Part shown: one piece after another, positions 5-5,379 of the stretch | Position numbering within the stretch: position 1 is the first letter of the stretch | Layout: every line of letters starts with the position of its first letter | Position numbers and translations under genes: made by a program | NCBI GenBank assembly: GCA_043820025.1 | Contig: JBDRED010000004.1 | Location: 1-5,379, forward strand | DNA: 5,379 bases | From: JBDRED01 sp043820025 [NCBI: Elusimicrobiota bacterium] | GTDB taxonomy: Bacteria > RUG730 > JBDRED01 | Direction: 5' to 3' | The notes under the pieces: model-generated | Told to the model about the DNA's origin: nothing | The model's input: the letters and a program-made list of their open reading frames with translations, nothing else | The model's database searches: none

Positions 5-3000
5 ATGAAAGCGCTGCTCGCAAAGATCGGTATTGGCGGAGCAGCTGCAGGCGGAACAGCGGCAATGATTGCAACCACATTTGTGCTTGGGCTTCCTGTG
101 GCTGTTTTATTTATGGCGCTATTATCATGGTCAAACAGAAACAAGCAGAAGAAATTAAGGAAGATAAAGGATAGAAGAGAAACAATAGTAATACAGGATA
201 TTAAAGAGCTTGATGAGCTGGGCTTAATGTTTGATGAGGAAGGCGAATTTGCTCTGACAGAAAATCTTGATGACCTTGAGAATATTTCTGAAGATGATAT
301 AAAAAATCAGACAGAAAGGCTTGAGAGGTTAAGACAGTTCCTCAACATTTTAATCAGCCCTGATGTAACGATAGATTCCCTGTCATTGCGAGAAGCCGAA
401 GGCGACGAAGCAATCTCCGTAAAATATTCTAACGGAAAAAATAGAGAAAATATTACGGTAGGAGTATTCTTGGATAATGCCAAAAAAGTTGTAAAAGATT
501 GGAGAAAGGCGCGTAGTGAATACGTATCTGAAAATGCGTACTCAAAACTTAAAATAAGCGCAAGAAATAACTTTAGATATCAGGCAGAAGAAGTAGTAGT
601 ACCAGCAGAAGAAGCCGGAGAAGTAGCCGGAGAAGAAGCCGGAGTGGAAGACAGAGACTCAGACTCAAGCTCAAGTAGTGAATTAGATAGTAGTCTGGAA
701 ATAGATGCTGAAGGAAAAATGGTTTTTGATTATTTAAGCGACGAATCCGAAGAGCCGCAGGTGCAGGCAAGTCTGCCACAAGCGGCGCAAGACGGGTGGT
801 ACAATGTTCTAGAAAATGAAAGGCCTGTTGTTATGAATTTTATTAGGTTCTGCCCTGCAATGGCAAAGAGTCTATTGCCAGCCGCCAATGTTAGGGAGTT
901 ACAATTTTTTGAGCCATTAAATAAGGGCAGGGGCCAAAGGCTTTTGGATATGCTGGTTAGCGCAAATAATGATTTTAATGAGAGAATGGAAACTAATCCT
1001 GTGCCTGCCGGCGAAAGCGACGCGTTATTACGTCATATGTTATACCACGCAATATGGAATTATTTTGGCAGTAATAGAGATGAGAGTGCATTAAATACAT
1101 CCAAAGCAGATAAATTTTTAAATATTCTTGCAGTAGATATTTTTAGAAAGGTCAGCCCTGCAAACCTGGAAAGGCTCATTGATCCTGACACAGGCGAGAT
1201 AAAAGAAGGCTATGCGCAAGCTGTCGCAGGCCTAATGGTTAGAATTTATGAAAATGAAAATAACAGTAACTTTGGAGATGGACTCACAGGCTATGTCAAT
1301 AATAAGCGCATAAAAGGCCATTATGACCAAGTTTTAACAGATCTTTTAACAAACAAAAACAAAGAACGTGGCGAAGATGCGCTAGATGTTGTTGGTATCC
1401 TATATGACGCGGTTCTTGAAGGACATGCTGACGATACATTTGGAGTTGCCCGCGATAAGAGGGCTGATGTTCTAAGGGTCACAAAAGAAGAAATACGATC
1501 ATACATGGTTCATGGCATGGCTGTGGAATATGACAATGAAACAAGAATAGTAAAATCAGCGCTCGATGACTTAAGCGAAAATGGCGTTTTACATAAAATA
1601 GTAGATCAAGAAACGCTTGCAGGCAAGCTGGATGCAGTCCGCGCAAAGAGCTTTGAGCTTGCGAAACAGGCAAAGCCTGAGGAAAAATTTAGATGGACGA
1701 TTATAGGAGGACGAATAGCAAATCTTTGGAAAAAGGGAAAAGCCTCAAAAATTTTAGCTGTAATATTATTTATTATTTATGGCATTACGTTCATTGGCCC
1801 GGTAATTGATATCGTATTCCCGGGAATATTAAGAGGCTTAGTAAAGTGGTCTTATTTTAAGATGGAAAAGAGGCTGGGACAACCGCCTGCTCATGCGGAA
1901 GTATATACAAACGAAAGTAGTCCGCAGATTGCGCACTCAGTAGACGCTATGATAGACGGGGCTTATAAAAATACATTATATTTAAAGTATAAAAACTGGC
2001 TCGCTAAAAAGAAGGAAACATGGGACGGCAAGTGGCTGGGTATAGGCACATATCTAAGATACTTAATGATGATATTTTTGCCAATACTTGCTGTATGGAA
2101 CTTCCGCGCGCTCTTGGCCCGCGATATTATGAAGGATAAATACAAAGAAACAGGCAAGGCGTTTGACCGAATAAACGAGGAGCTTTCAACATTTGTAGCT
2201 GTAACGCAGGATGATATTAATAACGCGGAAGAAAGGCCGCTCTACCTCATACAGGCTGATAAGGCCGGCGCTCAGCCTGAGATAGTATCAATGCTGTGGG
2301 TAATGCAGAACGCTATGCTTGATAAGGAATTCTTGTTTTCAAGAACAGGCAAGGCATACTCAACAGGCCTTGATGTATCATGGCACAGAAAACAATACTT
2401 AATGAACCGGCTCGCAATGATGAGAAAGGAAGAAACCTTAGAATATAAAAATGATGCAGGCAAAGTAGTTAATGGTCGTAATATTCCTGATGATCTTCCG
2501 TCTACGCGTATGGAGCGTATGCGTAAAGAGCTTATGGTTATGTCAGTTCTCCAGCGCAGTGGTAATAATCAGAATTTAGGAAATAATAAGATGGGGTATT
2601 TTGCTGTGCGCGGAATGCAGGGAATGGCAGATCCGTTATTTTATGGCACAGAGGATCCATACTTTCTTCCTATGTGGGAATATGCTGTCCGCGAAGGCAT
2701 TCAAAACCTGCCCGGACAGTTAGATATAAAGGTAACAGGCGCTGACCTTGCGGTAATTATGGGTATGGACCAAGAACTTGCATTTCGAGCGCTTAATGTT
2801 TGGTACAGCGATTTTGATGGCGCATATTATAAGGTAACTCTTGATAGATTTGCGCCGTTTATTGATAATATTGCCGCAAATAACGACAGGCAAAACGCGC
2901 TTATCGCGGCAATGCAGAGAACAGTGGACCCGCAGATGGATGAGCATATTAAGAGCGGCAAGGTAAAAGCTCCTGCGCATGTAAAGACAAACTGGGCAGG

Positions 3001-4957
3001 CGTTGTTATAGGGTTTGCTGTTGTTATGGCATTGGTGATAGGTATAATAGCGTTAGAAGCTGCGCTATTCTCAACAGGAATGGTGTATGTTCCAATACCA
3101 ATGTTAGCGTATGTATTTACAGCGCTCATAGGGTTTGCAGGCGCGATCCGTTTTGCTCGGTTCCTGGGCATTAATAAGCCGAGGAGCGACTATAGGTATA
3201 AATCAGGCGAGAAAGGAACATTAAGGCATTTTGTGATATCGCGTATGAAACAATATGGAGACCCGATTCCGCTTATGGGTTCATCAAGCGGTATACTTTC
3301 ATTGTATATGAAGCATATAGGCTGGCTCATAAATCCAAGGTTCTGGGGATATAGAAATTACTTGAACATGTTTAGAAAGATTGTGACGCCTCTTAATATA
3401 GCCAGGGCAGGCCTGTTTATTGGTATGCTGGCCGGAGTTGCGGCTGTTATTGTATTTAGTCCGTATATTACCGCATTCTTTGCAGGCCTTTTAGCTGCAG
3501 CGCCGTTCTATTTTGTTCCCGGCGGATTCCTAAGCGCATTTGGAGTAGCTCTCATTACGATCATAGTCCCTGCAATAATAGGTTTTGCGGCAAAGACTTT
3601 ACATCGCGCTGTTGAGCTTGGCGGGCCAAGAGCATTCTTTAAACATGAAATAACATTTGACGCGCTTGCAAAGACAGCAATGAAAATAGTTCTAGGCGCT
3701 ATTTTATTAGTTGTATTAGCGCTTGCTATGTCTGTATCAGCGCTAGCGCCTGCGCTGTCATTTATCAGCCCTGCAATATTTGTTGTTGTTTCAGCAATTG
3801 CAATGTATCAGGTAATGAGCGTTACAAGCAAGTCGCTATGGACTGACAGAAAACTGACAGAATCTGAGCGCGAGCAAAAGCTCTTTAAAGAAGAACAGGC
3901 GAATTATTGGAAGCGCGTATTTGGCGCGGCATTAGCGTATAATGTTATATTAGCCGTAGTTTTAGGTTCGCACGCTATAATGTTCATTGGCGCAAACCCG
4001 ATAGTGCTTGGCATTATGATAATATTATTCCTTTTAAACGCTTTTCTCTCAATATTCAGCTTCCAGTCAATATTTACATACTTAAACATGAAACAAAAGA
4101 TGGCTACGCAGTTTGACCTGGGCAATCTGCCTGCAAAAGCAAACCCGATTAAAAGGTTTATACATTTTATAAATCCATTGATAAAACAAATCTTTAAGAT
4201 TTATCGCGCAATATTCTGGCTGGGCGTTGTTCCATGGGCGTTCTTATCATTTGCTACTTCGAGCCTGTTCCTCATTCCTTGGACTGTCCCTGCTCTGGTA
4301 ATTCCTGTAATAGGCACAATAAGCGCGTTCTGGCCTGTGCTTGCTATTGTAGGCGCTGTAATGATTGCATACCTGGTAAACGGGTTCTTAATGAGAAAGA
4401 TGTATGCATGGCTGGTCCGAAAGGCCGCGGGAAATGATATGGCGGCTGAGAGCCTTATGAGGGATAAGGAGAGCCCTGTAAAGACGCTTGCTGATGTAGA
4501 GAAAGCGTTTAGAGAAAAAGGCATGGAGATATATGCTGAAAGCGGCCATATTATAAGGGTCTTAACATTAATAAGAAACGAAGGGTATATTACAGATGAG
4601 GAGTTTGATGATTTTAAAGATATTTTAGAAAATCCTGTTGAGCGGGCCGGTGAGTTTAAAAGATATGATACAAACAGAAAATCATACACACGTCTTTTTG
4701 GCAGGGAAGCATTATCTACGCAAAAAGGGCTAATGTTCCTGGAAACAGCTGTTTTCAATAAGTACTATCTATCTGTTGAGGAGTATTTTAACAGCATTAT
4801 TCAGGGAGGCCATCTGCATCTGGTAACAACTGAAATGGTGCAAAAGAGTTTTGAGGAGTTTTTCTGGTTTGACGATACGGAAATACATGATTTCACAATG
4901 GAATTACACATATACCCCACAGGTTCTGTAGCAAGACCTGTTTTTTTTAACTGGTGA
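5..4957 (+). CDS. Very large polytopic membrane protein of unknown family (possibly 5'-partial)
   Basis: I do not recognise this 1650-residue protein. Seen directly: one membrane segment (about 20-42) followed by a strongly basic stretch (43-58), which by the positive-inside rule puts the next part in the cytoplasm. A soluble, helix-rich part follows (about 60-580), interrupted by an acidic/Ser linker (194-236). Then come membrane segments at about 583-606 and 684-704 and a soluble part (706-996) containing an aromatic/Gly-rich stretch (863-906, with DPLFYGTEDPYFLPMW). A membrane block spans about 999-1022, 1028-1048, 1135-1152, 1154-1172, 1176-1196, 1228-1248, 1250-1270, 1305-1328, 1331-1358, 1403-1424, 1426-1442 and 1443-1461. 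Charged loops at 1049-1130, 1271-1304 and 1359-1402 are probably cytoplasmic, so one or two segment calls must be wrong or re-entrant. The tail 1462-1650 is soluble. No catalytic motif, Walker site or glycosyltransferase DxD/QxxRW pattern was convincing. A role in the cell envelope is inference from topology only. The frame is open upstream of the ATG (TTA codon at 2-4) and no ribosome binding site can be judged. The last 13 codons contain a terminator, so the C-terminus is suspect. Confidence 0.85.
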   Translation: MKALLAKIGIGGAAAGGTAAMIATTFVLGLPVAVLFMALLSWSNRNKQKKLRKIKDRRETIVIQDIKELDELGLMFDEEGEFALTENLDDLENISEDDIKNQTERLERLRQFLNILISPDVTIDSLSLREAEGDEAISVKYSNGKNRENITVGVFLDNAKKVVKDWRKARSEYVSENAYSKLKISARNNFRYQAEEVVVPAEEAGEVAGEEAGVEDRDSDSSSSSELDSSLEIDAEGKMVFDYLSDESEEPQVQASLPQAAQDGWYNVLENERPVVMNFIRFCPAMAKSLLPAANVRELQFFEPLNKGRGQRLLDMLVSANNDFNERMETNPVPAGESDALLRHMLYHAIWNYFGSNRDESALNTSKADKFLNILAVDIFRKVSPANLERLIDPDTGEIKEGYAQAVAGLMVRIYENENNSNFGDGLTGYVNNKRIKGHYDQVLTDLLTNKNKERGEDALDVVGILYDAVLEGHADDTFGVARDKRADVLRVTKEEIRSYMVHGMAVEYDNETRIVKSALDDLSENGVLHKIVDQETLAGKLDAVRAKSFELAKQAKPEEKFRWTIIGGRIANLWKKGKASKILAVILFIIYGITFIGPVIDIVFPGILRGLVKWSYFKMEKRLGQPPAHAEVYTNESSPQIAHSVDAMIDGAYKNTLYLKYKNWLAKKKETWDGKWLGIGTYLRYLMMIFLPILAVWNFRALLARDIMKDKYKETGKAFDRINEELSTFVAVTQDDINNAEERPLYLIQADKAGAQPEIVSMLWVMQNAMLDKEFLFSRTGKAYSTGLDVSWHRKQYLMNRLAMMRKEETLEYKNDAGKVVNGRNIPDDLPSTRMERMRKELMVMSVLQRSGNNQNLGNNKMGYFAVRGMQGMADPLFYGTEDPYFLPMWEYAVREGIQNLPGQLDIKVTGADLAVIMGMDQELAFRALNVWYSDFDGAYYKVTLDRFAPFIDNIAANNDRQNALIAAMQRTVDPQMDEHIKSGKVKAPAHVKTNWAGVVIGFAVVMALVIGIIALEAALFSTGMVYVPIPMLAYVFTALIGFAGAIRFARFLGINKPRSDYRYKSGEKGTLRHFVISRMKQYGDPIPLMGSSSGILSLYMKHIGWLINPRFWGYRNYLNMFRKIVTPLNIARAGLFIGMLAGVAAVIVFSPYITAFFAGLLAAAPFYFVPGGFLSAFGVALITIIVPAIIGFAAKTLHRAVELGGPRAFFKHEITFDALAKTAMKIVLGAILLVVLALAMSVSALAPALSFISPAIFVVVSAIAMYQVMSVTSKSLWTDRKLTESEREQKLFKEEQANYWKRVFGAALAYNVILAVVLGSHAIMFIGANPIVLGIMIILFLLNAFLSIFSFQSIFTYLNMKQKMATQFDLGNLPAKANPIKRFIHFINPLIKQIFKIYRAIFWLGVVPWAFLSFATSSLFLIPWTVPALVIPVIGTISAFWPVLAIVGAVMIAYLVNGFLMRKMYAWLVRKAAGNDMAAESLMRDKESPVKTLADVEKAFREKGMEIYAESGHIIRVLTLIRNEGYITDEEFDDFKDILENPVERAGEFKRYDTNRKSYTRLFGREALSTQKGLMFLETAVFNKYYLSVEEYFNSIIQGGHLHLVTTEMVQKSFEEFFWFDDTEIHDFTMELHIYPTGSVARPVFFNW
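381..417. repeat. Palindromic dispersed repeat (TGTCATTGCGAG...GAAGCAATCTC type) inserted in frame
   Basis: The sequence begins TGTCATTGCGAG and ends GAAGCAATCTC. Outer arms ATTGC (385-389) and GCAAT (410-414) are complementary, and an inner hairpin GCC-GAA-GGC lies at 395-403. From general knowledge, this signature (GTCATTGCGAG ... GAAGCAATC) recurs in many copies in a range of unrelated bacterial genomes, normally between genes. Here it lies inside the large gene and is read as residues 126-138 (LSLREAEGDEAIS) without breaking the frame, much as Rickettsia palindromic elements do inside genes. Only one copy is visible in this window, so the identification rests on recognition of the consensus, not on a second copy here. 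Confidence 0.7.
608..643 (+). repeat. Three tandem 12-bp units within the large gene (EEAG/EVAG/EEAG)
   Basis: Three consecutive units, GAAGAAGCCGGA, GAAGTAGCCGGA and GAAGAAGCCGGA, differ at one base and keep the reading frame. They encode residues 202-213 and open a low-complexity linker (about 194-236) that continues with an Asp/Ser run (RDSDSSSSSELDSS, 217-230). The DNA-level identity suggests replication slippage. The linker probably separates two folded parts of the N-terminal soluble region, and the repeat number could vary between strains. Confidence 0.8.
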
Positions 4958-5379
4958 AACAAAAAAAAGCTCAATGCTATTTGTCTAAACCATAAAAAAA
5001 GACCCTTCATCGCATCTTTTATGGTTAAGAACTCTTCCAGTATAAAAAGCCTCTCGCCATTGGTTGCAAACTTGCATGCCAGGCTTACGGCATCTTTAAA
5101 ATTATAACCATCTAAGGGTACGGGCATAAGTAGCCAGGTAATCGGAACTTTTGTCTCTTCCAGCTTGTCTTGAAGAGACAGGGCATATTTATTTCGAAAT
5201 ACGCCGTTCCTGGCAGCCTCTTTATCGACGGCAGGGAAATAACTAACGAAGAGACGTGTATTTGAAGATGGTTTCCTCGCTGTCAGGCTTGGAAGGCCTC
5301 TTCGAGCTATATAACAGGATGAAATCGTACGAAACCAAGCGTTAACACCGCGTAAAAGACTCCCGAACCAGCCCAATCG
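4801..5379 (-). CDS. Partial minus-strand gene, open at the right edge and probably 3'-truncated; possible surface-carbohydrate biosynthesis protein
   Basis: The frame is open to the window edge; a TTG at 5376 is the first possible start, but the real start probably lies outside. Numbering from that TTG, residues 1-138 look like a real protein: a basic, aromatic start (WFGSLLRGVNAWFRT), then FVSYFPAVD (43-51), NKYALSLQDKLEE (62-74), WLLMPVPLDGYNFKDA (81-96) and FILEEFLTIKDAMKGLFLWFRQ (111-132). The pattern reminds me of the middle region of TIGR04326-type surface carbohydrate biosynthesis proteins, but this is from memory and weak; a transposase fragment was also considered. From about residue 139 (position 4962) down to the stop at 4801 the frame is simply antisense to the large plus-strand gene and has no protein-like character, so the true coding part probably ends near the A-run at 4961-4968. 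The gene appears to have lost its 3' part. It is convergent with the large gene. Confidence 0.45.
   Translation of the reverse strand, partial: RLGWFGSLLRGVNAWFRTISSCYIARRGLPSLTARKPSSNTRLFVSYFPAVDKEAARNGVFRNKYALSLQDKLEETKVPITWLLMPVPLDGYNFKDAVSLACKFATNGERLFILEEFLTIKDAMKGLFLWFRQIALSFFLFHQLKKTGLATEPVGYMCNSIVKSCISVSSNQKNSSKLFCTISVVTRCRWPP
4919..4948 (+). terminator. Intrinsic (Rho-independent) terminator overlapping the end of the large ORF
   Basis: The arms ACAGGT (4919-4924) and ACCTGT (4936-4941) pair perfectly, can be extended by a T-G wobble towards an 11-nt loop region, and are followed by an uninterrupted run of eight T (4941-4948). This is the usual layout for termination of plus-strand transcription. 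It lies before the in-frame TGA (4955-4957), so RNA polymerase would be expected to stop before the annotated stop codon is transcribed. The minus strand has no T-run after the hairpin, so the element is not an obvious terminator for the opposing frame. Confidence 0.65.
4984..5030. repeat. Near-perfect inverted repeat, 14-nt arms, 19-nt spacer
   Basis: The left arm TCTAAACCATAAAA (4984-4997) and right arm TTTTATGGTTAAGA (5017-5030) pair at 13 of 14 positions, with one A-A mismatch; ten of these pairs are consecutive. Two further pairs (GA 5001-5002 with TC 5015-5016) can form if three A are bulged out. The structure is AT-rich, is not followed by a T-run that would make it a typical terminator on either strand, and lies within the minus-strand frame (residues around TIKDAMKGLFLWF). 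Its position, 16-70 bases from the suspected junction, is notable; its function is unknown. Confidence 0.5.

What the first reader, a model, noticed from the sequence alone, without database searches (positions are those of the whole stretch)
381..417. Palindromic mobile-type repeat translated in frame within a large membrane protein
A copy of the TGTCATTGCGAG...GAAGCAATCTC repeat lies inside the coding region, has complementary arms and a small inner hairpin, and is read as LSLREAEGDEAIS (residues 126-138). Repeats of this kind are normally intergenic. An in-frame copy, comparable to the Rickettsia palindromic elements, would mean that a selfish or structural DNA element has added a short peptide to a host protein in this lineage.
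Basis: partly seen in the sequence, partly recalled or inferred. Interest (0 to 1): 0.6.

Follow-up and report, generated by a model that had tools for sequence, protein, structure and literature searches.

The report
Palindromic repeat read inside a gene
A 36-37 base palindromic repeat of a widespread, probably mobile kind sits inside a large protein gene and is translated as about twelve amino acids; the same kind of repeat is found in frame inside ordinary enzymes of uncultivated Omnitrophota bacteria, although for this one gene a version without the repeat could not be found.

Summary
Bases 381-417 hold a TGTC-tagged palindrome read in frame as residues 126-138 of a 1650-codon ORF. Its 33-base core occurs exactly in 18 stretches of other genomes; the arm pattern occurs in 150 of 384 Omnitrophota genomes, the reversed pattern in none. 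The closest described kind is the CGTC/TGTC-tagged REP superfamily, which includes Rickettsia RPE-4 and RPE-6.

The in-frame reading is credible. In three Omnitrophota genomes 43 of 132 surveyed copies lie deep inside ORFs, among them ValRS, LeuRS and MnmE; single copies there have core lengths divisible by three more often than intergenic ones (24 of 33 against 14 of 41, P = 0.0012), and two ValRS relatives carry other copies at the same linker. In the window, 382-417 is 36 bp, with codons unusual for the gene.

Not shown: an empty site for this protein. No convincing relative was found, its genome is not held, and its 3' end runs into an inverted gene fragment. Verdict: new member of a known kind; the Omnitrophota pattern is the interesting part.

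The parts
381..417 (+). TGTC-tagged palindromic repeat (REP-like); probable inserted unit 382-417 = 36 bp, the length of 12 codons
   Evidence: unit edges inferred from base conservation beside copies in G001 and G002
381..384 (+). TGTC tag (variant of the CGTC tag)
   Evidence: sequence; tag variant described in PMC3733652 section 6, passage seen
385..389 (+). outer arm ATTGC, pairs with GCAAT at 410-414
395..403 (+). inner hairpin GCC-GAA-GGC
410..414 (+). outer arm GCAAT
383..415 (+). 33-base core found exactly in 18 stretches of other genomes; read as SLREAEGDEAI
5..4957 (+). host ORF, 1650 aa from the first ATG (frame open at the window's start); no family match above a curated cut-off
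4801..5379 (-). fragment related to TIGR04326 surface carbohydrate proteins; homology stops near 4887, so it overlaps the host ORF's last ~23 codons

Best explanation
This is a copy of a non-autonomous, dispersed palindromic element of the CGTC/TGTC-tagged REP type that became part of the reading frame of a large protein of unknown family. The unit GTCATTGCGAG...GAAGCAATCTC (382-417) is 36 bp, so it keeps the frame, and five of the six frames of its core have no stop. It can therefore be carried by a gene as a short cassette where the protein tolerates it, most likely at a loop or turn. Shown: the element's identity, its wide distribution, its in-frame position, its atypical codons, and in-frame copies in genes of other bacteria (Omnitrophota). 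Inferred: that it was inserted here rather than present from the start, that it moves with help from a transposase acting in trans or through a single-stranded hairpin, and that its effect on the protein is near neutral.
For: Exact 33-base core in 18 stretches of other genomes; 2 of the 3 Omnitrophota ones lie in frames of 1606 and 1075 aa. 197 copies in three Omnitrophota genomes, 0 with the reversed pattern; 150 of 384 Omnitrophota genomes carry it, control 0 in all 384 rows. Nearly the same arms, with CGTC tag and CCA tail, in a repeat pair of Novosphingobium aromaticivorans, a species the 2013 paper names as a CGTC-2 host. 43 of 132 surveyed copies lie at least 90 bp from either end of ORFs of 200 aa or more; single copies there have core length divisible by 3 in 24 of 33 against 14 of 41 intergenic (Fisher P = 0.0012); 0 of 43 use the frame with the built-in stop. 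ValRS, LeuRS, PheRS-beta, MnmE and an SMC protein are among the hosts. Of 30 ValRS loci, G002's own and two others hold different copies at one linker. Window element codons lie at the 0.37th percentile of the gene's own 12-codon windows.
Against: No empty site for this gene: no convincing relative found, host genome not held. In PdxA (L077) the repeat peptide mostly replaces a loop (11 residues where 24 of 29 relatives have 7), so clean insertion is not the whole story; LeuRS likewise gains only about 8 residues net over the solved homologue. A low-confidence single-sequence model puts residues 126-138 in two strands and the turn of a beta hairpin, which an original segment could also form. 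No transposase is linked to the repeat. At least three of the 32 deep ORFs (L050:2958, L096:2943, L109:2661) may be false N-terminal extensions (my reading).
Confidence: 0.78

Rival explanations
1. The ORF is not an intact, expressed gene: it is a decaying or wrongly joined stretch, and the repeat in it is merely carried along, so no functional protein has gained a peptide.
For: No convincing relatives of the 1650-aa protein; the ORF's last ~23 codons run antisense through a TIGR04326-like gene fragment whose homology stops near 4887, so there is a rearrangement or assembly junction at the 3' end.
Against: An uninterrupted 1650-codon frame with biased codon usage (Arg AGA+AGG 64%, Ile ATA 50%) is not what decay gives; the junction lies about 4.5 kb from the repeat.
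Confidence: 0.12
2. The repeat was kept because it does something in the gene: as mRNA hairpin, DNA structure, or a selected hydrophilic peptide that extends a beta hairpin.
For: The model (mean pLDDT 52; about 63-70 over the peptide) places it at the tip of two strands; REPs are proposed to act as RNA elements (PMC3733652).
Against: The RNA fold is no better than shuffles; the repeat kind occurs in unrelated proteins in five different frames, which argues against a common peptide function.
Confidence: 0.07
3. Chance or convergence: a native coding segment that happens to match the repeat.
For: Only the lack of an empty-site comparison.
Against: 33 of 33 bases match copies in unrelated genomes; codons atypical for the gene.
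Confidence: 0.02

Closest known systems
CGTC/TGTC-tagged REPs (Di Nocera, De Gregorio and Rocco 2013, PMC3733652; seen: section 0 part 1, section 15, section 17 part 1 of 2, outline, and passages)
   Same: TGTC is a listed variant of the CGTC tag; A-T pairs open the stem; pairs in opposite orientation; intragenic in-frame copies; no linked transposase; a repeat with nearly the same arms stands in Novosphingobium aromaticivorans, a named host.
   Different: Published stems are 8-9 bp with 4-5 base loops; here 5 bp plus an inner 3 bp stem. Omnitrophota are not named in its main text. Its Figure 2 consensus sequences are not held, so family-level identity was not checked.
Rickettsia palindromic elements (RPEs; Ogata et al. 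2000 and 2002, known here only as cited in PMC10969869, passages seen)
   Same: Palindromes translated in frame inside unrelated genes. The identical 33-base core is in a Rickettsia endosymbiont (L017), there overlapping only a 63-aa frame.
   Different: The reviewed RPEs are about 150 bp; this unit is 36-37 bp. Absence of the segment from orthologues could not be tested here.
GTAG REPs with RAYT transposases (REPtrons)
   Same: Short dispersed palindromes, often paired in opposite orientation.
   Different: Tag is TGTC, and none of the 7 Y1 transposase-like loci (found in 4 of 5 Omnitrophota genomes searched) has the repeat within its ~1.5 kb flanks.

Membership tests
CGTC-tagged REP superfamily | Unpaired CGTC (or TGTC/CCTC) tag at one end | tested here: met
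   TGTC at 381-384; variant listed
CGTC-tagged REP superfamily | Stem opening with complementary A-T residues | tested here: met
   ATTGC/GCAAT
CGTC-tagged REP superfamily | Stem 8-9 bp, loop 4-5 bases | tested here: not met
   5 bp outer stem, internal mismatches, 3 bp inner stem; therefore not filed in any of the four published families, only described as of this type
CGTC-tagged REP superfamily | Three-base tail, mostly CCA | tested here: inconclusive
   Window bases after GCAAT are CTCCG; both N. aromaticivorans copies end CCA
CGTC-tagged REP superfamily | Many copies in the host genome | not testable with these tools
   Host genome not held; many copies in some Omnitrophota genomes
CGTC-tagged REP superfamily | No transposase gene flanked by the repeat | tested here: met
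   0 of 7 Y1_Tnp loci flanked, tested in other genomes only
Rickettsia palindromic element-like in-frame insertion | Palindrome translated in frame within a larger ORF | tested here: met
   Frame shown; translation itself not observed
Rickettsia palindromic element-like in-frame insertion | Absent from orthologues of the same gene | tested here: inconclusive
   No orthologue of the window protein found; in other genes, clear for ValRS and partial for PdxA
Rickettsia palindromic element proper | Member of a named RPE family in Rickettsia | not tested
   Host unknown; RPE consensus sequences not held
RAYT-mobilised REPtron | GTAG tag and a RAYT gene flanked by the repeat | tested here: not met
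   TGTC tag

The most novel reading that the evidence does not exclude
Many Omnitrophota live with palindromes that keep spreading into protein-coding genes as frame-keeping cassettes of about twelve codons, repeatedly filling the same tolerant linkers (such as one in valyl-tRNA synthetase) with different repeats, so that selfish DNA is a steady source of new protein segments there; the window gene is one case.
Probability: 0.4. Interest if true: 0.65.

Novelty: new member of a known kind. Interest (0 to 1): 0.42.

Why it matters
Protein-coding palindromes were called a unique feature of Rickettsia (title of Ogata et al. 2002, seen in a reference list) and later found in a few other species (PMC3733652). 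Seeing such a repeat in frame in core enzymes of an uncultivated phylum, with a length bias that fits frame-keeping, gives many natural insertion sites with relatives for testing how selfish DNA enters proteins and what they tolerate. It also warns annotators that peptides such as IASSPSAPRND or VIARSEATKQS are repeat-coded, not conserved motifs.

Tried and rejected
Homologue search for the window protein: genome contigs, viral contigs, 4 genomes, 384 Omnitrophota, 294 Elusimicrobiota, 293 in a class draw, 47 of one order (the Omnitrophota draws overlap), PDB sequences, plasmids, phages. Two weak hits were not accepted, and neither covers residues 126-138. L019 (residues 1080-1176, 26% identical, one TAG inside) lies on the strand opposite to all four listed ORFs. 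L110 (960-1084, 26%, one TGA inside) overlaps the start of a 471-aa frame that I take, from recall, for an amino-acid permease, in a hydrophobic stretch; it did not appear in the pooled tblastn but does with L110 alone. A distant membrane-protein relation is not excluded.

Pfam DUF2852 is below its cut-off (18.9 against 22.5 bits). Rfam: nothing up to E 1 (65). A repeat-flanked RAYT: not found. Naming the host from the TIGR04326-like fragment (best 45%, G016) was rejected because of the junction near 4887. Codon usage put the ORF nearest to one Omnitrophota genome among eight small groups, which is weak. The structure model is too poor to decide. The RepRanger paper (PMC12306157, passages seen) has no 'omnitroph', 'in-frame' or 'intragenic' in its main text. 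A literature search for the repeat's letters gave 124 papers; the 25 listed have no visible bearing.

Full report
What is there. Bases 381-417 are TGTCATTGCGAGAAGCCGAAGGCGACGAAGCAATCTC on the + strand. They lie in a frame open from the window start to 4957; from the first ATG at base 5 the ORF has 1650 codons, and LSLREAEGDEAIS starts at residue 126. The outer arms ATTGC and GCAAT pair over 5 bp and an inner GCC-GAA-GGC stem over 3 bp; the predicted RNA fold is not better than dinucleotide shuffles (z 0.00).

More than chance. The 33-base core 383-415 matches exactly in 18 stretches of the genome collection: 3 Omnitrophota, 1 Elusimicrobia, 11 alphaproteobacterial other than Rickettsia (five of them from Sphingomonas montanisoli), one Rickettsia endosymbiont, one deltaproteobacterium, one Rhodothermales. 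The arm pattern TCATTGCGAG-N6-24-CGAAGCAATC occurs 41, 103 and 53 times in three Omnitrophota genomes, and the reversed pattern never. In a draw of 384 Omnitrophota genomes 150 have it, with zero control matches in all 384 rows; 61 have ten or more copies, 12 have fifty or more, and the largest number is 243 in G379 (recount). The distribution is very patchy, as expected of something that spreads.

What kind of thing. The inner part of the copies varies in length and sequence but keeps somewhat more internal complementarity than shuffled letters: 83 distinct inner parts among 132 copies, mean longest inner stem 3.2 bp against 2.4. Copies often stand in pairs; 34 of the 132 have a mate within 40 bp. 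A pair with CGTC tags, CCA tails and nearly the same arms (one base differs in one copy) stands between two genes of Novosphingobium aromaticivorans plasmid pNL2. This fits the CGTC-tagged REPs of Di Nocera et al. 2013 (PMC3733652; I saw section 0 part 1, sections 15 and 17 part 1, and passages): tag CGTC or TGTC, A-T opening the stem, intragenic units, no dedicated transposase, N. aromaticivorans among the hosts, and R. conorii RPE-4 and RPE-6 in the same superfamily. The published stem length of 8-9 bp is not met by the window copy, so I do not assign it to one of the four published families.

Does it really lie in genes. I fetched 60 stretches around copies from three Omnitrophota genomes, holding 132 of their 197 copies (40 of 41 in G001, 44 of 53 in G003, 48 of 103 in G002). 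By a simple ORF rule 58 are inside, 20 at the edge of and 54 outside ORFs of 100 aa or more. Under a stricter rule (at least 90 bp from either end, ORF of 200 aa or more) 43 copies in 32 ORFs are deep inside, 35 otherwise overlap ORFs, 54 are intergenic, although ORFs of 100 aa or more cover 91% of the sequence: copies are depleted in genes, but a third are still there. Among single copies the core length is a multiple of three in 24 of 33 deep copies and 14 of 41 intergenic ones (Fisher P = 0.0012). The test pools genomes and treats copies as independent, and the ORF rule itself drops genes broken by frameshift; either way the bias needs copies that entered a reading frame. None of the 43 deep copies uses the one frame with a built-in stop. 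At least three of the 32 deep ORFs (L050:2958, L096:2943, L109:2661) may be false N-terminal extensions. In G001 and G002 the conserved unit has one G before and TC after the core, so a 33-base core makes a 36-bp unit, as in the window (382-417); G003 has other edges.

Which genes. I scanned 29 proteins of the 47 intragenic ORFs, namely 28 of the 32 deep ones and one shorter. By my reading 13 have recognised domains or solved-structure homology on both sides of the repeat peptide or spanning it: ValRS, LeuRS, PheRS-beta, PdxA, MnmE, an SMC hinge, a MurD-like ligase, an MbnB-DUF2063 protein, a VWA-TPR protein, an aldolase-SDR fusion in two genomes, an AddB-like protein and a HAD hydrolase; an E2 acyltransferase and a DegT aminotransferase probably belong too. 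The other 14 have domains on one side only, at the edge, or none. ValRS aligns with the solved enzyme 1gax on both sides of a gap of 33 residues against 6. LeuRS and PheRS-beta are less clean: the peptides fall in variable linkers, with a net gain of about 8 and 17 residues.

Empty sites. Against 29 ValRS loci of relatives, the repeat columns hold 24 residues in the query and 8 or fewer in six relatives whose frame spans the site (L161, L163, L165, L172, L175, L184); L176, L182 and L185 give no information there. Two others (L158, L164) carry their own, different copies at the same place, and L160 carries what reads as another TGTC-tagged palindrome. Most of the rest have other filler of intermediate length, so the linker is variable anyway; it has been filled repeatedly by different repeats. 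In PdxA the result goes partly against simple insertion: the query has 11 residues where 24 of 29 relatives have 7 (the others 6, 6, 8, 10 and 13), so the repeat replaced native codons or was followed by a deletion.

The window gene itself. Its element codons are among the least typical 12-codon windows of the gene (0.37th percentile); its GC content is not unusual. A single-sequence model of residues 41-262 (mean pLDDT 52, too low to rely on) puts the peptide in the facing halves of two strands and their turn, at about 63-70: insertion at a hairpin turn and an original hairpin cannot be told apart. No convincing relative was found; two weak hits do not reach residues 126-138. The genome is not held.

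The 3' end. On the - strand 4801-5379 is a fragment related to TIGR04326 surface carbohydrate proteins (66.6 bits, below the cut-off of 250), 45% and 43% identical to two Omnitrophota genes whose frames (680 and 662 aa) are far longer, the similarity stopping near base 4887. The last ~23 codons of the large ORF run antisense through it. A rearrangement or a misjoined contig ends the large gene here, so the fragment cannot be used to name the host.

Mechanism. Shown: a dispersed element with a nearly stop-free sequence and, in a common form, a frame-keeping length. Inferred: it moves non-autonomously, perhaps as a hairpin handled by a transposase in trans; none was found beside it (0 of 7 Y1 transposase-like loci). 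Insertions that break a gene are lost and those that keep the frame at tolerant linkers stay, which would explain the length bias.

Novelty. In-frame REPs and RPEs are in print. I found no paper that joins Omnitrophota with such repeats (one search listed 14 papers, none of them on this by title, one search was swamped by CRISPR papers with 15 of 3,683 listed, 60 and 74 gave 0). The window copy is a new member of a known kind; the in-frame load in Omnitrophota is the part worth following.

Noticed in passing
window 4801-5379 (-) and ~4887: Fragment of a TIGR04326-like gene overlaps antisense the last ~23 codons of the large ORF; homology stops near 4887, so a rearrangement or assembly junction ends both genes.
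   Followed up: partly
L099/L156, L158, L164, L160 (valyl-tRNA synthetase): The same linker of ValRS holds different palindromic repeats in different Omnitrophota genomes and filler of varying length in others: a recurrent insertion site.
   Followed up: partly
L077:12718-13800 (PdxA): Repeat peptide VIARSEATKQS stands where most relatives have a shorter loop; net gain about 4 residues, not 11.
   Followed up: yes
L084:2028-4109 and L102:1-1687: An aldolase-SDR fusion protein carries repeats in its inter-domain linker in two different Omnitrophota genomes.
   Followed up: no
G379: 243 copies of the arm pattern in a 1.8 Mb Omnitrophota genome, the highest load seen; 234 of the 384 genomes have none.
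   Followed up: no
L070-L089 (G003 stretches): In this genome the repeat has different conserved edges (GTG up to the core, TTTT after it), unlike G001 and G002.
   Followed up: no
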